Assembly: GCA_020631335.1 (NCBI GenBank)
Contig: JAHDHK010000016.1
Span: 1-37,853 of the forward strand
Length of the DNA stretch: 37,853 nucleotides
DNA from: Chromatiales bacterium
Lineage (GTDB): Bacteria; Pseudomonadota; Gammaproteobacteria; Granulosicoccales; Granulosicoccaceae
Direction of reading: 5' to 3'
In this document: piece after piece, positions 27,431 to 36,354 of the stretch
How the letters are laid out: each line of letters begins with the position of its first letter
Numbering within the stretch: position 1 is the first letter of the stretch
Position numbers and translations under genes: made by a program
The notes under the pieces: generated by a model
Told to the model about the DNA's origin: nothing
What the model saw: only the letters and a program-made list of their open reading frames with translations
Database searches by the model: none

Positions 27431-27434
27431 TTGA
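27252..27434 (+). CDS. Possible 60-residue small protein coupled to the Rieske-like gene
   Basis: The frame encodes an Arg/Cys-rich peptide (WQRFERYCLFDRINR, then GRGCINC). It begins inside the previous small frame and ends with TGA overlapping the TTG start of the Rieske-like gene. The chain of overlaps argues weakly for translational coupling. All three forward frames are partly open here, so coding is not secure. Confidence 0.2.
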   Translation: MLLSGSAGDWQGEKVWQRFERYCLFDRINRSTCRFRHDAGRGCINCSEFQVNPLSNPDLF

Positions 27435-28018
27435 ATCAACCGCACACTACTGATAACAGCCGTCGACTGATGCTTCGCGTTATCGTCAAACTGATGCTGG
27501 CGTTTGCAGCGCTGGTGGCTCTGTGGGTCATACTCTCACCACTTTTCAGAACAAACGTGCAGGTCAATGTTAAACCCGTAGAGACAGTGATTGATGTTTC
27601 TGAAATTGCCGAAGATTCCATTGACATCATGGAGTGGTTTGATAAACCCCTTATTATAGCCCGGTGGTCCGATGTGACGCTCAATCGACTACAGGCCATA
27701 CCTTATAACGGGCTTCGTGACGCTGATAATAAAAATTCGCTGCAACCCGACACCACAGACAAGCTGCAGCGCAGTGTCGCCCCCGGCTGGTTTGTGGCTA
27801 TCGGTATTGGTACTTCCAGTGGATGCGCACTCGCGTACCAGCCTGAGATCTTGAACAACCGGGAGAACGCTGTGTTTGTCGATCCCTGTGATGGCAGTCG
27901 ATACGACTTTGCCGGCAGGGCGTTAAGTGGCAGTGTCGCTAAAAAGAATATTCCTGTGCCACACTGGCGGATTGATGGCAGCAGAATTGTTGTGAGCACA
28001 GAACCGGTCAGACCGTAG
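27431..28018 (+). CDS. Membrane-anchored Rieske-fold protein lacking all iron-sulfur ligands
   Basis: The 195-residue protein has an N-terminal membrane anchor (about 13-39) and the layout of the Rieske subunit of the bc1 complex: hinge, IDVSEIAEDSIDIMEWFDKPLIIARWS, then the cluster-binding fold. The box that should be C-T-H-L-G-C reads G127-T-S129-S-G-C132, and the box that should be C-P-C-H-G-S-R-Y-D reads D151-P-C153-D154-G-S-R-Y-D. All four cluster ligands (Cys, His, Cys, His) are gone, but the two disulfide cysteines and the surrounding fold residues are conserved. The fold is therefore kept under selection without a [2Fe-2S] cluster. The start is a TTG (27431); an ATG at 27470 would shorten the anchor. 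No cytochrome b or c1 gene is adjacent. Function unknown. Confidence 0.75.
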   Translation: MNQPHTTDNSRRLMLRVIVKLMLAFAALVALWVILSPLFRTNVQVNVKPVETVIDVSEIAEDSIDIMEWFDKPLIIARWSDVTLNRLQAIPYNGLRDADNKNSLQPDTTDKLQRSVAPGWFVAIGIGTSSGCALAYQPEILNNRENAVFVDPCDGSRYDFAGRALSGSVAKKNIPVPHWRIDGSRIVVSTEPVRP

Positions 28019-28169
28019 GTGTCGCCATTCGTGAAACGCTTTTTCTTAATCTTCGGGGCAAAGGTGCTGTAGCGAAGCTGACGGCCAAAGTGTCATCGCC
28101 GATAGTTATTTAGTGAATTCAAATGTAATTGCTGACAGCAACGCCTGAACGATAGTTTTCGCATCACGG

Positions 28170-28370
28170 CTAATAATGAGGTGGCAGAGTCTCTTCCGAA
28201 ACCGGGGCGAGCGGTGAATCCATGGATTCAAGCCTGCGTTTGTATTCTTCAATTTTTCTCACCAGCACATCAATTGTCTGCTGCTGGTCTATCACTACGT
28301 TATTGAGCTGTTCAACGGTCAACTCGAGATCCATCAACTTCAATTCTACTGCTTCTATTCTTTGATCCAT
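28170..28370 (-). CDS. slyX: SlyX family protein
   Basis: The 66-residue protein consists of an N-terminal coiled coil (EAVELKLMDLELTVEQLNNVV) followed by the family's short tail ending PPHY, the SlyX hallmark. SlyX function is not well defined; in enterobacteria it lies near slyD/fkpA. It follows the MreB-like gene on the same strand after 120 bp. Confidence 0.88.
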   Translation of the reverse strand: MDQRIEAVELKLMDLELTVEQLNNVVIDQQQTIDVLVRKIEEYKRRLESMDSPLAPVSEETLPPHY

Positions 28371-28490
28371 ACTGTCGCCACCGGCCGGGGTAATTCGCTG
28401 TATTGTGCACTAACAAAAACACTGATGACGCGCTAAATTAACGCGCTGTTGTGTTTGCGTGCATGTCGCACTCCCGCAGGCGCAGTGCTA

Positions 28491-29543
28491 TCAGGCCGGA
28501 TCCGACGCCCTTGAAGTGCCATGGATTCTGGACAGCAACACTGCACCGCCACTCACCGCAAGGGCAGCCGGGTTACTGGCAATTTGAACCGGGCAGTTGC
28601 CGGCTTCCATCACCAGTTGATCTATCTGCGCCAGTTGTGAGCCGCCACCGGTTATGATGATGGCAACGTTTTGTTGTGGATTGCGGAACTGGTAAGGCAG
28701 TGCCTGGACTGCAGCGCTGAGCGCCTCGCTTGCCCGTTGCATCGCCGGCTGAAGTAATTCGCAGGCAACCTCTGTGGTCAGGGTGAAATTCGCGTAGTCG
28801 TTTTCTGCGATCTGTAATCCCCGCATCTGGCATGAGTTGCGGAGTTGCTGCCCGAGCGAAGATGTCATTGCACGTCCGACCAGATGCTTGGCCTGTTGTG
28901 CCTGTGGTTTTGAAACGTAAAGTCCGTAACGTTCTCGGATGCCCCGGGCCATTGCGTCGTCGAGCATATCGCCGCCGAAAGGCAGTGAATAGGCAGCCAC
29001 GATTTCGTTGAATTGCATGGCATAGAGCCTGGCGGCGCGCGCCCCGAGATCCAGCAGCATCTGCGGATGGCTATCCTCGACAGACAATCCTGCACCAACG
29101 GCGCAGGCGATGGCGTTGTCCACCAGATGAACCCTCGATGCGCCGGCGGTAAAACAGGCATGCTTGAGGTCATCGGTGAGCAATTGGGATATGCCCGGCG
29201 GGATGTTCAATAATACTACCGGTGCTTTGCCGAGCATGCCGCCTCGACGCAACGCTGAAAAGTAATGTCTCAGCATCTGCGAGGTGTAGCCTAGCGGGTT
29301 GCGATCGTCTGATTGCAGCACGCGAATCAGCCGGCTGGATGAAGACTCTGCAGCCGCAGTAATCGCGTCTCTGCCGAACTTGCTCATCGCGTTGCTGCCG
29401 CCGGTGCGATGCTGCATGTCGAGCAGTCCGACCGAGGGCTCATCAAGTATGAGTCCGTCGGTTTCATGAGCAATTCGAATGTGATGACCGCCCAGATCCA
29501 CCGAGATGCGTGTGGCTTTCGGTCCGGGTGATTTCCTGAACAT
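28491..29543 (-). CDS. Degenerate MreB-like actin-fold protein at the gatCAB locus
   Basis: The 350-residue protein follows the MreB pattern from end to end: MFRKSPGP start, SVDLGGHHIRIAHETDGLILDEPSV, a QMLRHYFSAL helix, VLLNIPPGISQ, VHLVDNAIACAVGAGLSV, and C-terminal IIITGGGSQLAQIDQLV. The nucleotide-binding residues are altered. Phosphate-1 loop is DLGGHH (16-21) instead of DLGTAN, phosphate-2 is DLGARAARLY (165-174) instead of DIGGGTTEV, and EEP in the catalytic region is VDN. Only the adenosine motif TGGG is kept. It is divergent from gatC exactly where mreB lies in Pseudomonas-type genomes, but mreC and mreD do not follow. ATP hydrolysis and filament formation are doubtful. Confidence 0.8.
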   Translation of the reverse strand: MFRKSPGPKATRISVDLGGHHIRIAHETDGLILDEPSVGLLDMQHRTGGSNAMSKFGRDAITAAAESSSSRLIRVLQSDDRNPLGYTSQMLRHYFSALRRGGMLGKAPVVLLNIPPGISQLLTDDLKHACFTAGASRVHLVDNAIACAVGAGLSVEDSHPQMLLDLGARAARLYAMQFNEIVAAYSLPFGGDMLDDAMARGIRERYGLYVSKPQAQQAKHLVGRAMTSSLGQQLRNSCQMRGLQIAENDYANFTLTTEVACELLQPAMQRASEALSAAVQALPYQFRNPQQNVAIIITGGGSQLAQIDQLVMEAGNCPVQIASNPAALAVSGGAVLLSRIHGTSRASDPA

Positions 29544-29776
29544 AGCTTTCCCGTGATGCCGCGATTTCTAACGAGTATAGTTGGGCGCTGTGCTTTCGCC
29601 AGCGCACTTGCTGTGTGTGTATCGTGAGCAGCCTCAGCCGCTATTGGGTGTTGCCGGCGGGTTGTCCGAAAAGCATCGGTATTTTTTTCGGGCAGCCCGG
29701 ATTTCGACAGAGCAGCAACGTTAATCCGGCAGGGTGATCTGTGTTAAATTAGGCGTTTTTCCTGTTGGACATCTGC

Positions 29777-30064
29777 ATGGCTGTTGATGAAAAAACCGTG
29801 GCCGAAGTGGCCCATCTTGCCCGGCTTCAAATTGACGGAGAGCTTGTCTCGGAGTACGCCCGGGAGATGTCAAATGTACTGGCACTGGCTGAGACCATGA
29901 ACGATATCGATACCAGTGATGTTGAGCCCATGGCGCACCCTACGCATGCGGTACAGCGTCTGCGTGACGATGCGGTCACCGAAACCAATCAGCGTGAGGC
30001 CTTTCAACAATGTGCGCCTTCAGTTGAAGCAGGCTACTACCTGGTGCCTCAGGTGATTGAGTGA
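29777..30064 (+). CDS. gatC: Aspartyl/glutamyl-tRNA amidotransferase subunit C
   Basis: The 95-residue subunit stabilises GatA in the GatCAB complex, which converts Glu-tRNA(Gln) and/or Asp-tRNA(Asn) to Gln-/Asn-tRNA. Family pattern: VAEVAHLARLQIDGE and MNDIDTSDVEPMAHPTHAVQRLRDDAVTE, with C-terminal GYYLVPQVIE. The ATG at 29777 is the canonical start; an in-frame TTG at 29765 exists. It is the first gene of gatC-gatA-gatB, which indicates indirect charging of tRNA(Gln)/tRNA(Asn) in this organism. Confidence 0.95.
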   Translation: MAVDEKTVAEVAHLARLQIDGELVSEYAREMSNVLALAETMNDIDTSDVEPMAHPTHAVQRLRDDAVTETNQREAFQQCAPSVEAGYYLVPQVIE

Positions 30065-30114
30065 CCGGTTGCCCGCTCTACCGCTGACACTCCCAACTCA
30101 AACGGCCCCACATC

Positions 30115-31572
30115 ATGCATACTCATTCCATCGCCGCAATTCGCAGACATTTGTCGAACGGCGACTACTCCAGTAAAGAGCTTTGTGCGCACCTGCTCGC
30201 CCGCATTAAGCAGTTAAATGAAACCAACAACGCTTTCATCGAAATCACTGAAAAAGAAGCGCTGTCAGCGGCCGAACAGGCCGATAACACCCGCGCATCG
30301 GGTGGTGCCGCTTCTTTACTCGGGGTGCCGTTAGCGCACAAAGATATTTTTTGCACCAAACACGTCCGCACCAGTTGCGGGTCTAAAATGCTCAAGAACT
30401 TTGTTCCGCCTTATGATGCAACCGTGGTGGATAAGCTGGCTGCAAGTGGTGCGATCACGCTTGGCAAGACCAACATGGATGAATTTGCAATGGGGTCATC
30501 CAACGAAAACAGTCACTTTGGATCGGTGGCCAATCCATGGGATAACGCACGTGTGCCCGGTGGTTCTTCCGGTGGCAGTGCCGCTGCGGTTGCAGCGCGT
30601 ATGGTGCCTGCAACTACCGGCACAGATACCGGTGGTTCGATAAGACAACCGGCCGCATTCTGCGGTATTACCGGAATCAAACCGACCTACGGCAGAGTGT
30701 CCCGTTATGGCATGGTGGCTTTTGCGTCCAGTCTCGATCAGGGCGGTCCGATGGCCACTACCGCTGAGGACTGCGCTTTGTTACTTGAATCGATGGCAGG
30801 ATTCGATGAGCGTGACTCCACCAGCATCGATCAGCCGGTAGATCAATACAGTGCCGAACTGAACCGATCTCTTGATGGTTTACGTGTAGGGCTCCCCCGA
30901 CAGTATTTCTCCAGTGATCTTGATGCCCCCATCGCCGATGCGTTGCAACAGGCCATTGAAGAACTAACCAGGCTTGGCGTGTCATTCGTAGAGGTGGATC
31001 TTAAAAATCAGTCGCTTGCTGTACCGGCGTATTATGTGGTGGCACCGGCGGAATGCTCATCGAATTTATCACGCTTCGACGGGGTTCGTTACGGCCATCG
31101 TTGTGACGGACCTGTCGATCTTGAAGACCTTTACAAGCGATCGCGCGCAGAGGGGTTCGGTCGCGAAGTGAAACGCAGGATTCTGATAGGCACGTATGCG
31201 CTTTCAGCCGGTTACTACGACGCTTATTACCTGAAAGCGCAAAAGGTACGTAATCTGATCTCACAGGATTTTACGCAGGCTTTTGAAAACGTCGATGTGA
31301 TACTTGGTCCAACCACGCCGACACCCGCTTTCAAACAGGGTGAAAACAGCGACGATCCGGTAGCGATGTATCTTAACGATATTTTTACCATTCCAGCCAA
31401 CCTGGCCGGACTGCCTGCGTTATCTGCGCCTTGCGGGTTTGTTGAAGGATTGCCTGTCGGGTTGCAGTTAATTGGTAATTACTTTGATGAAGCGCGATTG
31501 TTGAATATCGCCCATCAGTTTCAGCAGGTGACCGACTGGCATTTGCAGATGCCTGCTGATATCCGCGCCTGA
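30115..31572 (+). CDS. gatA: Aspartyl/glutamyl-tRNA amidotransferase subunit A
   Basis: The 485-residue amidase releases ammonia from glutamine or asparagine for the transamidation. The Ser-cisSer-Lys triad is intact: Lys76 (PLAHKDIFC), Ser151 ([12 protein letters not shown]) and Ser175 ([11 protein letters not shown]), with the same spacing as in the S. aureus enzyme. Length is normal. It starts 50 bp after gatC and is followed by gatB after 40 bp. Confidence 0.96.
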
Positions 31573-31612: not shown

Positions 31613-33049
31613 ATGCAATGGGAAACAGTTATCGGTCTTGAGATTCATGCCCAGCTTGCGACAAAAAGCAAGATTTTCTCGGCAAGCTCAACCGACTTCG
31701 GGGCCGAACCCAACACGCAGGCTAACGCAGTGGATCTCGGGATGCCCGGTGTTCTGCCGGTGTTGAACCGCGAGGCGGTACACATGGCGATCAAGTTTGC
31801 GCTTGCCACCGATGCCGACATCGGTTACCGAAGTGTGTTTGCAAGAAAAAATTATTTCTACCCGGATCTGCCTAAAGGGTATCAGATTTCCCAAATGAGT
31901 CTGCCGATCGTTGGCCGGGGGAGTGTCGACGTCACGCTCGATGACGGTGCAGTGAAAAAAGTCGGTCTGACCCGGGCGCACCTCGAAGAAGATGCGGGTA
32001 AGTCTGTCCACGATGCGTGGCAGGGACAGACCGGAGTTGATTTGAATCGCGCCGGAACACCGTTGCTGGAAATAGTCTCTGAGCCCGATATGCGAAGCGC
32101 TAAAGAGGCGGTGGCTTATGCGCGCAAGATTCACTCTATTGTGCGATATATAGAAATCTGTGACGGCAACATGCAGGAGGGATCTTTCCGTTGTGATGCC
32201 AATGTCTCTGTCCGGCTCTCCGGTGAGAAAGAGTTCGGTACCCGTGCTGAAATAAAGAACGTTAATTCTTTTCGCTTTCTTGAGCGCGCCATTAACTTTG
32301 AGGTCGAGAGGCAGATAGACATTCTCGAGAGTGGTGGTGAAGTTATTCAGGAAACACGTTTATACGATGCAGACAAAGACGAAACACGTTCTATGCGCAG
32401 TAAAGAAGAGGCTAACGATTATCGTTATTTCCCTGATCCCGATTTATTGCCTGTAGTGGTAGAGCAGTCGCTGGTAGAGCAACTCAAACAAACATTACCC
32501 GAGCTTCCCGAAGCGCGTAAAGCCCGGTTGATGCAGGAGTTAAAGTTACCGGAGTACGACGCAGCGGTTATTACCGCAGATAAAGCGACCGCTGACTTCT
32601 TTGAATCTGCACTCGACGCCAGTGGTTGCACTGCCAAGCTTGCAAGCACCTGGGTGACAGGAGAGTTGTTCTCGCGGTTGAACAAAGATGGTCTCGATTT
32701 AAGCGAGTCGCCGGTGGATGTTGAACGCTTCAGCGGATTGCTTGCGCGTATGCATGACAATACCATCTCGGGAAAAATCGCCAAGCAGGTGCTGGATCAG
32801 ATGTGGGGTTCCGGTTCGACTGCCGATGAAGTCATTGACCAGGAAGGTTTGCGACAAATCTCTGATTCATCCGAGATAGAAAAGATGATTGATGATGTGA
32901 TTGCTACTAATCCTTCTCAGGTCGAAGAGTATCGGGCAGGTAAAGAGAAGTTGCTTGCGTACTTCGTCGGGCAGGTGATGAAGGCGTCACGGGGCAAAGC
33001 GAACCCCGGTCAACTCAACGAGTTGCTCAAGCAAAAGCTCAACAGTTAG
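31613..33049 (+). CDS. gatB: Aspartyl/glutamyl-tRNA amidotransferase subunit B
   Basis: The 478-residue subunit binds and activates the mischarged tRNA with ATP. It starts [21 protein letters not shown] and has [61 protein letters not shown] and a C-terminal YqeY-like helical domain ending [16 protein letters not shown]. All are typical of GatB and intact. It is the last gene of the gat operon. Confidence 0.96.
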
Positions 33050-33274: not shown

Positions 33275-34438
33275 ATGGTGTTCGGGATCAGGCGGTTGAA
33301 ACGTAGATACAGACGGTTCCGGTATAACAATCAGGCGCGTTTTCCCCGTCTGTTTGTCGTGTACGACATGATAAAGCTGCCATTACAGATTCTGCTGGTA
33401 GCACTTCCGTTATGGGTAGTCGTCGGTTTGTACAACGAACATTTTTCCTTTGAAGCACAAACACAGCAATCACGCTTGCTCTCAGCTAACGATAGCAGTG
33501 TGGAGAGCGGTGTCGCGCGCAATACAAACCCCGAGGATTCGCCTTTAGCGGGGATGGCAGTACCCATTGTTCGAAACCAGCCGGCATTGCAAATCGGGAG
33601 TGAGGCTGAACTATCTGCAGATCAGCAGGCCATTCTGAATGTTCAGGATACCGGCGAAGAGTTTGATCTGTCACCTCCGAAAAGAATCGATGCAATCGCC
33701 TCTAACCCTCAAGTGCTCGCCGAAAATAAACTGCTTAAAGACGCAATGGCGGTACTCGGTGAAAACACCGGTGATGAAGCCAAGGCCATCGCTGAAGTCA
33801 CGACCGGCGGTGCAACCTTACCCGCAGGATCAAATGGAACTTTGGCGGGAACGACTGACCCGGTGGGGAATTCAGCTGCCAGCGGCCCTGAGCTGATCCG
33901 CAATGATCACAACGTATTGGTCAAAACGGTTCCGGTATCTGTTATTCGGGAGCTCCCGGATAACGCTAAGCCACCGGTAACCGAGCCGTTGTTTCAGTCA
34001 GACAAACAGACAAAGCTCACCGCGGTGATGGCACAGCTCTCAGGTCCGGTGGATATTCACCGTGATGACAACATGGTTGAGTCTGTTGTAATAGAGCCTG
34101 TGGCAGACAGGCCGGTCTCGGTGCGCGGCAGAGACTGGCTGGCAGCGCAGGATGATCGTAGCTATGTCATTCAGCTGGAATCATCTGCTAACAGCGGCAT
34201 CATGGAAGAAAAAGCGCTGGAGCTGTCGGTAGCCGATGATCTGGCAATCTATCCGTTTGTTGTGTCACGACAGGGTGAGGTGATCTACGGGCTTTCCTAC
34301 GGATTGTATGAGACGCTCGGACAGGCCAGAAAGGCCAGCGCTGAGTTGCCGGATGAGCTGGTTAGGTTTGGCACCTGGATCCGGCGGGTGGGTACATTGA
34401 AGCAGCAAATGAAGGTCGTTGAGCAGTCAGCTGAGTAG
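33275..34438 (+). CDS. SPOR-domain membrane protein
   Basis: This 387-residue protein has a basic cytoplasmic N-terminus, one membrane anchor (about 36-52), a long low-complexity periplasmic linker (55-280) and a C-terminal SPOR domain (about 288-378: DRSYVIQLESSANSGI, FVVSRQGEVIYGLSYGLY, ARKASAELPDELVRFGTWIRRVG). SPOR domains bind denuded septal peptidoglycan, and proteins with this layout (DamX type) work at the division site. The order and lengths resemble DamX rather than FtsN. It is near a disabled MreB-like gene, which fits a cell that relies on septal growth. AAGGAG lies 5 nt before the ATG. Confidence 0.85.
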   Translation: MVFGIRRLKRRYRRFRYNNQARFPRLFVVYDMIKLPLQILLVALPLWVVVGLYNEHFSFEAQTQQSRLLSANDSSVESGVARNTNPEDSPLAGMAVPIVRNQPALQIGSEAELSADQQAILNVQDTGEEFDLSPPKRIDAIASNPQVLAENKLLKDAMAVLGENTGDEAKAIAEVTTGGATLPAGSNGTLAGTTDPVGNSAASGPELIRNDHNVLVKTVPVSVIRELPDNAKPPVTEPLFQSDKQTKLTAVMAQLSGPVDIHRDDNMVESVVIEPVADRPVSVRGRDWLAAQDDRSYVIQLESSANSGIMEEKALELSVADDLAIYPFVVSRQGEVIYGLSYGLYETLGQARKASAELPDELVRFGTWIRRVGTLKQQMKVVEQSAE

Positions 34439-34552
34439 GTAGTCTGTCGATCTGTCAGGCTTACACTCCATGGCTGCACAAATATTACTTTTAGTTAACG
34501 TTGTGACTGGTATTTGATACACTTGGGCAAAATCGCCGCAGCCCAGGTTGAC

Positions 34553-35119
34553 ATGCGAACCTTCACTTTTTCTTTGTTGTTGTTATTCACTCCGCTTTCA
34601 TTTGCTGCCGGCCCACTCGCGCTACCTGTAACTGTCTCCGGTTTTCTGGAGCGTCAGTCCATTTCGCTATCCGGTGAAAAGTTTGAGCCGGTGCTTGCCG
34701 GTGCAACTCTGGGCGCCTGGATTTATGAAGGTATCGGGATTGAGATTGGGTACGGTGCCAGCATCAGTGATGATACGGTCGCCAGTTTGGCACTTGAAAC
34801 AAACTCGCAGTGGTCAGTCGGTGTTCGCTTCGAATCAGCACCGATTGACGGTATTGCTGCCTATGCGTTGTTTGCCGTATCAAGCGTGTCGATAAATTCC
34901 CGTTTTACTGCCGGAGTGGCTTCATCCGAAGACAGTCACTTTCGCGGAGCACGCGGCGTATTCGGCCTGACCTTTCCGCTGCGTAGCCGCTGGGCAGTAG
35001 ATGCAGCTTTTGTCCGTCACGAATATGATGACGATTTCGGCATCAACGGGGTGCGTATCGGGCTGCGCTATAACGTCAATAATGTAAGACCGCGTGCAAG
35101 GCGAGGATGGTGGCAATGA
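34553..35119 (+). CDS. Outer-membrane beta-barrel protein
   Basis: The 188-residue protein has a signal peptide (MRTFTFSLLLLFTPLSFA, cleavage about residue 19). The rest is alternating amphipathic beta strands with Gly/aromatic girdles (LGAWIYEGIGIEIGYG, GVFGLTFPLRSRWAVDAAF, RIGLRYN), as in 8-stranded OmpA/OmpW/porin-like barrels. The last residue is Trp-Gln rather than Phe. ATG 34553 is chosen because it begins the signal peptide. It overlaps the next gene slightly, so they are coupled. Confidence 0.75.
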   Translation: MRTFTFSLLLLFTPLSFAAGPLALPVTVSGFLERQSISLSGEKFEPVLAGATLGAWIYEGIGIEIGYGASISDDTVASLALETNSQWSVGVRFESAPIDGIAAYALFAVSSVSINSRFTAGVASSEDSHFRGARGVFGLTFPLRSRWAVDAAFVRHEYDDDFGINGVRIGLRYNVNNVRPRARRGWWQ

Positions 35120-36354
35120 GGATTCTGTCAGGCAGTTGTGCGATTATGCTGGTCGGAATGCTGGTGGCCTGCGACAGCGACAACGATGCAAAGCAACTGC
35201 GCAATCGCGTTACGGTCGCAACTCAAAACTACGATGCGGTGGAAATCCGGTCGGCGAGTGATGTACTGGAAGCCGATACGCTGAGCGCGTTAACGCTATG
35301 GGCCGGTAATGGTGAGCCATCTATTGAGCATACAACTGATGCAATCTGGGCAAGCAATGCTGTTGATATTGCGAAAGTCAGTAGTGCGGGTCTGGTGTCG
35401 GCGCTGGCCGACGGCAATGTGACGATCAGTGCGCAATTCGGCTCCTTAACCGCGACTAGAGTCCTGCGTGTTTCTTCAGCGCCGTTAACCAGCATTTCGC
35501 TGGATGCGCCGGCAACTTTAGACGAATGCGAGAGTGTGCAGATTTCGGCAACCGGTTTGTTTGCTGCGGATGACGGCAGTGAGCGCAATATCACCGATGC
35601 TGTGTCATGGTCTGTCAGTAACACTCCGGCCACCGTTGGTGTTTTCAGTAGTGTCACCCCCGGGTTGTTTCGCAGCAGCAATACCGGCTCTGCGGTGATC
35701 ACTGCAACCAGGGGAAGCATAAGCAGGCAGGCAACTATCGCGATCGCTGATAATCTTGAGTCGCTGACATTGCTTCCGGTATCTCCGGTACTGTCTACTT
35801 CAAGGCCGACTGTGTTTTCAGTTACTGCCGGCTACAATAACAAGGATGCAACACCGGATATTTCCGATAACGCCTCATGGGTAATAGCAGATACCGGCAT
35901 AGCCAGTATAGATAATACTTTACCCGGCAAGGGTACACTGAACCCGTTTGCCAACAGTAACACCACCATGACGGTCTCCTGTGGCGGGCAACAGGTTGTC
36001 CGGTCGTTGGAAATCGGTGATCCGAGTATTGTAGAAAGTATAAAGTTCGGTCGCGAGGATAATCCTTTCTCCTTTGATTATCAGGGTAGTGAAATCATTG
36101 TTCAGTTGCGAGCTGTTGCAGTGCTACAGACGCAAAACGAAGAAACAATCACCGAAGATGTTGACTGGATTGTTCAGTCACGTGACGACGGCACCCCTAT
36201 TACGCTTAGCAACGATAGCGGCTCCAAAGGCCAGCTAACGGTGAGAGGGCGCGGTAGCATTACGGTTCGCATTGAGTACGACTTTGACAGCGACCGCTTC
36301 AATGAAGACGACAGTACTTTTAACAAGCCGACTCTGACCATTAATGTACTTTAG
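35116..36354 (+). CDS. Ig-like (BIG2-type) lipoprotein
   Basis: This 412-residue protein has a lipoprotein signal (MRILSGSCAIMLVGMLVACDSD, lipobox LVAC, Cys19). It is followed by repeated bacterial Ig-like domains with the pattern TDAIWASNAVDIAKVSSAGLVSALADGNVTISA (about 70-105), then a second (about 125-205) and further beta domains. Such modules occur in surface and adhesion proteins. ATG 35116 is preferred because GAGG lies 11 nt upstream; ATG 35107 would give three more residues. It is coupled to the barrel protein upstream, so the pair may work together at the outer membrane. Asp/Asn-rich loops could bind calcium. Confidence 0.8.
   Translation: MRILSGSCAIMLVGMLVACDSDNDAKQLRNRVTVATQNYDAVEIRSASDVLEADTLSALTLWAGNGEPSIEHTTDAIWASNAVDIAKVSSAGLVSALADGNVTISAQFGSLTATRVLRVSSAPLTSISLDAPATLDECESVQISATGLFAADDGSERNITDAVSWSVSNTPATVGVFSSVTPGLFRSSNTGSAVITATRGSISRQATIAIADNLESLTLLPVSPVLSTSRPTVFSVTAGYNNKDATPDISDNASWVIADTGIASIDNTLPGKGTLNPFANSNTTMTVSCGGQQVVRSLEIGDPSIVESIKFGREDNPFSFDYQGSEIIVQLRAVAVLQTQNEETITEDVDWIVQSRDDGTPITLSNDSGSKGQLTVRGRGSITVRIEYDFDSDRFNEDDSTFNKPTLTINVL

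What the first reader, a model, noticed from the sequence alone, without database searches (positions are those of the whole stretch)
28491..29543. Relic MreB at the gatCAB locus with the nucleotide pocket lost and no mreC/mreD
The protein is MreB-like along its length, yet the phosphate-1 loop (DLGGHH), phosphate-2 loop (DLGARAARLY) and the catalytic EEP (VDN) are changed. It sits divergent from gatC, where mreB lies in Pseudomonas-type genomes, but slyX follows it instead of mreC and mreD. This looks like decay or repurposing of the rod-shape system in a lineage that may be coccoid. An intact, well-conserved frame argues for a retained non-filament role.
Basis: partly seen in the sequence, partly recalled or inferred. 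Interest (0 to 1): 0.75.

Follow-up and report, generated by a model that had tools for sequence, protein, structure and literature searches.

The report
Orphan MreB outliving its elongation machinery
A group of marine bacteria has lost the cell-elongation machinery but still keeps, under selection, a strongly altered copy of its actin-like protein MreB whose ATP-splitting residues are gone, which suggests that a bacterial actin was given a new job.

Summary
Confirmed: the minus-strand ORF at 28491-29543 encodes a 350-aa MreB homologue with rewritten phosphate loops and no catalytic Glu, divergent from gatCAB and followed by slyX. It is the only full-length MreB found in the genome; MreC, MreD, RodA, PBP2, RodZ and ZapD were not found. 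The same holds for the 13 held congeners and one sister-genus genome (15 in all). In the same family (records named Granulosicoccaceae), 2 genomes keep mreB-mreC-mreD at this locus and 31 of 48 have no MreB. A four-gene tree implies two independent elongasome losses; MreB survived only one. It is the positional orthologue of mreB, not a paralogue and not decaying: 15 of 15 frames are open, omega is 0.11, although relative to four other genes it evolves about ten times faster than canonical MreB. The triad E140/T167/E169 is gone and new residues are fixed (R23, D79 in 15 of 15; R172 in 14 of 15), while adenosine-side motifs (GGG, K219) remain, so 'pocket lost' is too strong. Inter-protofilament residues and the amphipathic start are not kept. 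Best reading: a catalytically dead MreB kept as a scaffold, perhaps for the divisome. Closest precedent: Spiroplasma MreB3. Function and cell shape are untested.

The parts
28491..29543 (-). Divergent orphan MreB (called MreB* here), 350 aa
29475..29498 (-). Phosphate loop 1, residues 16-23 (DLGGHHIR); D16, G18 and R23 invariant in 15 of 15; canonical is DLGTANTL
29298..29315 (-). Residues 77-82 of the new PxQxDxxN motif (D79 15 of 15, N82 14 of 15), in place of canonical DGVIADF
29181..29183 (-). Residue 121, position of C. crescentus V118 (inter-protofilament contact); V in 0 of 15, V in 17 of 17 canonical
   Evidence: role of V118 from passages of PMC4051119
29115..29117 (-). N143, position of the catalytic Glu (C. 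crescentus E140); E in 0 of 15
   Evidence: role from passages of PMC9597168 and PMC4051119
29028..29051 (-). Phosphate loop 2, residues 165-172 (DLGARAAR); A170 at T167, R172 at E169; R172 in 14 of 15
28884..28889 (-). K219-H220; K219 kept in all MreB compared (15 of 15 and 17 of 17), H220 in 15 of 15 MreB* (8 of 17 canonical)
28680..28682 (-). Residue 288, aligned to C. crescentus S283 (intra-protofilament contact); acidic in 10 of 15 MreB*, in 0 of 17 canonical; the register in this loop is not certain
   Evidence: S283D makes CcMreB monomeric (passages of PMC4051119)
28641..28649 (-). G299-G301 of the kept adenosine-side motif TGGG
28170..28370 (-). slyX, directly after MreB* where mreC would be
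   Evidence: Pfam SlyX 62.7 bits
29765..30064 (+). gatC, divergent neighbour (mechanical TTG start)
   Evidence: Pfam GatC 63.4 bits
30115..31572 (+). gatA
   Evidence: ORF, named by sequence and place; homologue beside MreB* in 15 of 15
31613..33049 (+). gatB
   Evidence: ORF, named by sequence and place; homologue beside MreB* in 15 of 15

Best explanation
MreB* is the vertically inherited orthologue of mreB that stayed at its ancestral place beside gatCAB when the rest of the elongasome (mreC, mreD, rodA, the PBP2 gene, rodZ) and zapD were lost in the line leading to two genera of Granulosicoccaceae. Shown here by computation: orthology by position and tree, absence of partners in the searches, loss of the hydrolysis motif, fixation of a new residue set, purifying selection. 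Inferred: it no longer hydrolyses ATP at a normal rate, does not form the canonical antiparallel double filament, and is kept as a static actin-fold adaptor, most likely holding or timing part of the division machinery that used to lean on MreB. Behind the last step: Veyrier and colleagues (PMC4498754) note that elongasome parts touch the divisome in E. coli and suggest that those kept in cocci may still localise or time the divisome.
For: Synteny: G018 has gatBAC | mreB-mreC-mreD-hydroxyacid dehydrogenase-slyX and G021 the same with its contig ending inside gatA; MreB* genomes have gatA, gatB and gatC on one side in 15 of 15 and slyX on the other in 14 of 15, the 15th contig (G005) ending there; five of five MreB-less loci looked at read gatC | slyX with no gene between. 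Absence of partners in the family outside g6: MreC 0 of 23, MreD 0 of 23, RodA 0 of 23 over cut-off, PBP2 0 of 23 over cut-off; full-length RodZ-type HTH hits only in the two g6 genomes among 48; ZapD 1 of 48, G018. Census: 17 of 48 have MreB: 14 of 14 g1 and 1 of 1 g5 of the divergent kind, 2 of 2 g6 canonical (scores). Selection: omega 0.110 in 14 g1 genes against 0.071 in 17 canonical genes; pN below pS in 91 of 91 pairs. Hydrolysis triad: E140 and T167 kept in 0 of 15, E169 in 1 of 15; the motif matters for Pi release in Spiroplasma MreBs (PMC9597168 passages). Fold kept: Foldseek ranks MreB or Mbl entries 1-25 also for a model built without canonical rows.
Against: No experiment; nothing here shows what MreB* binds. 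The divisome link rests on literature about other bacteria. Adenosine-side motifs are kept and R23 could bind phosphate, so a slow or nucleotide-switched filament is not excluded; Spiroplasma MreB3 still polymerises without the motif. The membrane loop keeps two hydrophobic residues in 13 of 15, so membrane binding may persist. Absences rest on draft genomes, 77-98% complete in g1, and the MreD model rang in only 5 of 14 control genomes and missed Caulobacter, which has mreD (recalled), and G030. Eleven non-g6 genomes, G000 among them, have a partial HTH_25 hit just over the Pfam cut-off.
Confidence: 0.6

Rival explanations
1. MreB* is still a polymerising cytoskeletal filament, slow and stable because hydrolysis is lost, working like Spiroplasma MreB3 without MreC/MreD.
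For: Spiroplasma MreB3 lacks the same motif yet forms double filaments (PMC9597168 passages). Fold, adenosine-side motifs and the hydrophobic loop are kept.
Against: The inter-protofilament position V118 is not V in 15 of 15 and is polar or charged in 8 of 15; the intra-protofilament position S283 is acidic in 10 of 15, and S283D makes CcMreB monomeric (register of that loop uncertain). The N-terminal amphipathic sequence is gone.
Confidence: 0.25
2. A relic in slow decay: kept only because too little time has passed since the elongasome was lost.
For: It evolves fast: MreB distance over four-gene distance averages 4.20 in 105 MreB* pairs against 0.37 in 6 canonical pairs, and 31 of 48 family genomes have no MreB.
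Against: 15 of 15 frames open, omega 0.11, pN below pS in 91 of 91 pairs, 52 columns kept in at least 14 of 15, some of them new (R23, D79, R172) rather than ancestral. The genomes are deeply split (synonymous sites saturated in 50 of 91 pairs), so neutral decay should have broken it.
Confidence: 0.04
3. A paralogue or horizontally acquired actin-like protein, with a canonical mreBCD elsewhere.
For: Low identity to canonical MreB, 23-29%.
Against: Only full-length MreB in the genome and one MreB at E 1e-20 or better in each of 13 congeners; exact ancestral place; MreB* subtree follows the main groupings of the four-gene tree; no MreC, MreD, RodA or PBP2 found.
Confidence: 0.02
4. MreB* is a nucleotide-free pseudo-actin whose cleft is locked by new salt bridges among R23, R172, D79 and N82, serving as a rigid platform.
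For: These four positions lie in or beside the two phosphate loops and the 77-82 loop and are nearly invariant. G017, the sister genus, has R23 and D79 but E at 172 and T at 82, so the set arose in steps.
Against: No coordinates could be inspected, so contacts are not shown; adenosine-side motifs are conserved, which is unexpected if no nucleotide binds.
Confidence: 0.25

Closest known systems
Canonical proteobacterial MreB (C. crescentus, E. coli)
   Same: Fold, length, genomic place beside gatCAB in the relatives examined, GGG motif, K219, first Asp and Gly of both phosphate loops, hydrophobic loop
   Different: No E140/T167/E169 triad, loop consensus rewritten, VERRA helix and amphipathic N-terminus gone, 4-residue insertion within 226-242, no MreC, MreD, RodA, PBP2 or RodZ found
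Spiroplasma MreB3
   Same: Natural MreB lacking the E...T-X-[D/E] hydrolysis motif, in a cell without the elongasome's cell-wall role
   Different: One of five MreB copies in a wall-less helical swimmer; Asp and Lys at the first two motif positions there, Asn/Ala and small residues plus Arg here; here a single copy in a bacterium that keeps FtsI- and FtsW-type division proteins
Elongasome loss in Neisseriaceae and Moraxellaceae cocci
   Same: Loss of mreCD, pbpX, rodA, rodZ as a set, and of yacF/zapD in Neisseriaceae (passages of PMC4498754)
   Different: There mreB is deleted with the rest, or the whole machinery is kept; here one lineage keeps a remodelled mreB alone
FtsA and PilM (actin-fold relatives)
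   Same: Actin fold; weak Pfam hits below cut-off
   Different: Score far below MreB; MreB locus and MreB as the nearest fold

Membership tests
MreB | Sequence family (Pfam MreB_Mbl) | tested here: met
   145.1 bits against 27
MreB | NCBIfam subfamily cut-offs for MreB (TIGR00904, NF010539) | tested here: not met
   128.8 against 365.75 and 146.1 against 293
MreB | MreB/actin fold | tested here: met
MreB | Orthologous position beside gatCAB | tested here: met
MreB | Hydrolysis motif E140...T167-X-[D/E]169 | tested here: not met
   0 of 15, 0 of 15, 1 of 15; kept in 17 of 17 canonical
MreB | Works with MreC, MreD, RodA, PBP2, RodZ | tested here: not met
   none found in G000 or its 13 congeners (RodZ, where only weak partial HTH hits occur); draft genomes
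MreB | Amphipathic N-terminal helix for membrane binding (Gram-negatives) | tested here: not met
   LRGxF-type start absent in 15 of 15 by eye; residues 1-9 coil, pLDDT 54 for 1-10
MreB | Hydrophobic membrane loop | tested here: met
   two hydrophobic residues at 103-104 in 13 of 15
MreB | Antiparallel double filaments | not testable with these tools
   positions V118 and S283 are not kept, but no filament assay
Spiroplasma MreB3 | Lack of the hydrolysis motif | tested here: met
Spiroplasma MreB3 | Asp and Lys at the E140 and T167 positions | tested here: not met
   N/A/G/R and S/G/A/H/N here
FtsA | FtsA family score | tested here: not met
   25.7 bits against 31.8; 29.2 against 175.85

The most novel reading that the evidence does not exclude
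A bacterial actin has outlived its cytoskeleton: after losing every known Rod partner, MreB was turned into a single-copy, ATPase-dead pseudo-actin with its own residue set (R23, D79, N82, R172), working as a static, probably monomeric adaptor of the division machinery. A sister group lost the elongasome independently and dropped MreB, giving a natural experiment on which MreB function is separable from rod shape.
Probability: 0.35. Interest if true: 0.85.

Novelty: new variant of a known kind. Interest (0 to 1): 0.7.

Why it matters
MreB is read in genomes as the mark of rod shape and of the Rod complex. Here a conserved MreB orthologue persists with neither its catalytic residues nor its partners, so annotation by name would mislead, and a function of MreB apart from elongation can be studied free of it. 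The family offers three states at one locus (mreBCD, mreB* alone, none), two of them reached by independent losses, which makes the old question of what elongasome proteins do in non-rod cells directly testable.

Tried and rejected
Considered and rejected: paralogue with mreBCD elsewhere; pseudogene; FtsA or PilM member; misassembly (15 genomes agree).

Led nowhere or weak: promoter and terminator scan of 28000-30200 gave no promoter-like site (shuffles 1.2) and one terminator-like site (shuffles 1.9). A class-wide scan of 369 genomes with the MreB* profile showed no second MreB* lineage: G000 scored 492 bits, the next best 251, but G000 was the only g1 genome with a match in that sample, is itself in the profile, and an independently altered MreB elsewhere need not score high. 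That position 288 acidity mimics S283D is kept only as suggestive, since the loop register is uncertain. Literature searches for MreB in Granulosicoccus (0 papers) and for MreB without MreC, loss of MreB in cocci, or degenerate MreB (listings read) showed no description of this case; the library holds open-licence PMC papers only.

Results against my reading: the MreD model rang in only 5 of 14 control genomes and missed one class genome that has MreB and MreC (G030). The RodA model has one sub-cut-off hit in 21 of 23 family genomes outside g6 and the PBP2 model a 276-323-bit sub-cut-off hit in 22 of 23; I read these as FtsW and FtsI from score and single copy. The HTH_25 model passes its cut-off in 13 of 48 genomes; 11 of these, G000 included, are partial hits (about 33-36 of 62 positions, at most 26.8 bits) that I read as other HTH proteins. 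The four-gene tree puts g1+g5 with genomes of two other families with support 70, which does not affect the two-loss inference; several genomes lack one or more of the four genes. My first neighbourhood print left slyX out in G006, G007 and G012 because of an overlap filter; a direct check found it. In the MreB tree the split between MreB* and canonical has support 100 and g1 against G017 has 76; one search printed 76 for the wrong node after re-rooting.

Full report
Observation. The minus-strand ORF 28491-29543 is open over 350 codons, matches Pfam MreB_Mbl over nearly its whole length (145.1 bits, E 3e-42) and misses the NCBIfam cut-offs for MreB by a wide margin. The neighbours are gatC, gatA, gatB on the + strand and slyX downstream on the - strand.

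Genome-wide check. The window is contig C182, bases 1-37853, of a 5.58 Mb draft of 368 contigs, 93.5% complete. The Pfam MreB model gives one full-length hit; the other four are partial hits in longer frames (413-658 codons), which I read as FtsA- and DnaK-type relatives from frame length and position. MreC: 17 of 40 genomes examined have it; in the window's family (25 of the 40) only the two g6 genomes do, 0 of the other 23. MreD: 16 of 40, in the family again only g6. RodA: over its cut-off in 16 of 40, in the family only g6; of the other 23, 21 have one hit of 277-304 bits, read as FtsW, and G001 and G007 have none. PBP2: over cut-off in 17 of 40, in the family only g6. RodZ: HTH_25 hits over the whole domain (80 and 70 bits) only in the two g6 genomes among 48; 11 other genomes, G000 among them, pass the 24.6-bit cut-off with partial hits of at most 26.8 bits. 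ZapD: 1 of 48, G018; G021, 80% complete, has none. Controls of the same searches: MreC rang in 8 of 14 named genomes, RodA over cut-off in 4, PBP2 over cut-off in 6, MreD in 5, ZapD in 1.

Who carries what. All 48 held genomes of the family were searched with an MreB alignment: 17 have MreB at E 1e-20 or better and 31 do not. The 17 are 14 of genus g1 (the window's), 1 of g5 and 2 of g6; the 31 are 27 of g4, 3 of g2 and 1 of g3. In the Pfam search the g6 proteins score 480-484 bits and the g1 and g5 proteins 130-188. Granulosicoccus on kelp is described as coccus shaped and in pairs or tetrads (passages of PMC9238374 and PMC8944128). So the shape evidence concerns, most likely, a genus without MreB; the shape of g1 is unknown.

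Three states of one locus. In G018 the order is gatBAC | mreB, mreC, mreD, a D-2-hydroxyacid dehydrogenase gene, slyX, an uncharacterised gene, a SAM methyltransferase gene; G021 is the same, its contig ending inside gatA. In the MreB* genomes gatA, gatB and gatC lie upstream in 15 of 15 and slyX follows in 14 of 15 (in G008 cut by the contig end; the contig of G005 ends before it); the uncharacterised gene follows slyX in 13 of 13 loci that reach so far. In five MreB-less loci examined (G014, G016, G019, G020, G023, of 31 such genomes) gatC and slyX are adjacent in 5 of 5. This makes MreB* the positional orthologue of mreB and shows clean removal of mreCD in one line and of mreBCD in another.

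History. A tree of GatA, GatB, FtsI and FtsW (28 genomes, 1844 columns, with missing pieces in several) supports g1+g5 (100), g2+g3+g4 (100) and g2+g3+g4+g6 (100). Since g6 keeps the whole elongasome and groups with the MreB-less genera, the elongasome was lost at least twice, and only the g1+g5 line kept MreB. In the MreB tree the MreB* proteins are split from canonical MreB with support 100 on a long branch (1.33), and their subtree repeats the main groupings of the four-gene tree.

Selection and rate. Fifteen of 15 frames are open. Omega (MG+F3X4) is 0.110 for 14 g1 genes and 0.071 for 17 canonical genes. Among the 12 nearest pairs, 8 have finite dS, with dN/dS 0.069-0.186; gatA in the same 12 pairs gives 8 finite values of 0.020-0.053; over all 91 pairs pN is below pS in 91, and 50 are saturated. 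MreB distance over four-gene distance averages 4.20 (2.37-5.79, 105 non-independent pairs) in MreB* and 0.37 (0.33-0.41, 6 pairs) in canonical MreB. So it is fast but constrained.

What changed in the protein. Of 157 columns kept in at least 16 of 17 canonical MreBs, 38 keep the same residue in at least 12 of 15 MreB* and 69 have the canonical residue in at most 1 of 15. Hydrolysis triad (roles from passages of PMC9597168 and PMC4051119): E140 position N 7, A 6, G 1, R 1; T167 position S 6, G 5, A 2, H 1, N 1; E169 position R 14, E 1. New or newly fixed residues: R23 and D79 in 15 of 15, N82 and R172 in 14 of 15, also A52, C130, L126, G201 and A314 in 15 of 15. By loop register R23 stands where actin has K18 and R172 where actin has H161; the H161 equivalence is in PMC9597168, the K18 one is recalled. 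Kept: D16, G18, D165, G167, D192, K219, G299-G301 in 15 of 15; that the last two are adenosine-side motifs is recalled. Filament contacts: V118 position V in 0 of 15; S283 position acidic in 10 of 15 against 0 of 17, register uncertain. The amphipathic N-terminus is absent by eye, the hydrophobic loop keeps both hydrophobic residues in 13 of 15.

Mechanism. Shown: orthology, orphan state as far as the searches reach, loss of hydrolysis residues, purifying selection. Inferred, in falling order of confidence: no normal ATP hydrolysis; no canonical antiparallel double filament; a static adaptor role; the divisome as the client. The last follows a suggestion in the Discussion of PMC4498754 (that section read in full) that elongasome proteins kept in cocci may still place or time the divisome.

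Comparison. Spiroplasma MreB3 is the nearest known MreB without the motif; it still polymerises and hydrolyses slowly (passages), which is why a stable-filament rival stays open. Neisseriaceae and Moraxellaceae lost mreBCD, pbpX, rodA and rodZ in the history of their cocci, with yacF lost first in Neisseriaceae (passages of PMC4498754), while a second coccoid Neisseriaceae lineage kept the elongasome (passages of PMC9395523). Retention of mreB alone, remodelled, was not found in print in searches (listings read).

Noticed in passing
L062:4533-5501 (G018) and its G021 counterpart: A D-2-hydroxyacid dehydrogenase gene sits between mreD and slyX in the two canonical genomes and is missing from the locus where mreCD are missing; it was not sought elsewhere in those genomes.
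   Followed up: partly
window 27431-28018 (+): A 195-aa protein without any Pfam hit is conserved beside slyX in 15 of the 19 loci compared, g6 included, and in the five MreB-less loci.
   Followed up: no
window 33275-34438, 34514-35119 and 35107-36354 (+): Two proteins after gatB have no Pfam hit; the first has homologues in 3 of 19 loci, the second in 14. A protein with a Big_2 domain follows, also in 14.
   Followed up: no
family-wide, 48 genomes: ZapD was found in 1 of 48 genomes, in line with the loss of yacF/zapD that accompanied coccoid shape in Neisseriaceae (PMC4498754).
   Followed up: partly
G390 and 26 other g4 genomes: The g4 genus, probably Granulosicoccus itself, has no MreB hit in 27 of 27 genomes.
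   Followed up: partly
P0001 residue 130 and equivalents: A cysteine is invariant in 15 of 15 MreB* where canonical MreB has Ala in 15 of 17; no role known.
   Followed up: no
G004, G005, G012 gatA: The gatA alignment passes one TAA in three congeners; perhaps just the natural end of the gene, not examined.
   Followed up: no
G000:C96:5748-5846 and similar frames in G002, G008: A weak partial HTH_25 hit lies in 205-codon frames of three g1 genomes; read as an ordinary HTH protein, not checked further.
   Followed up: no
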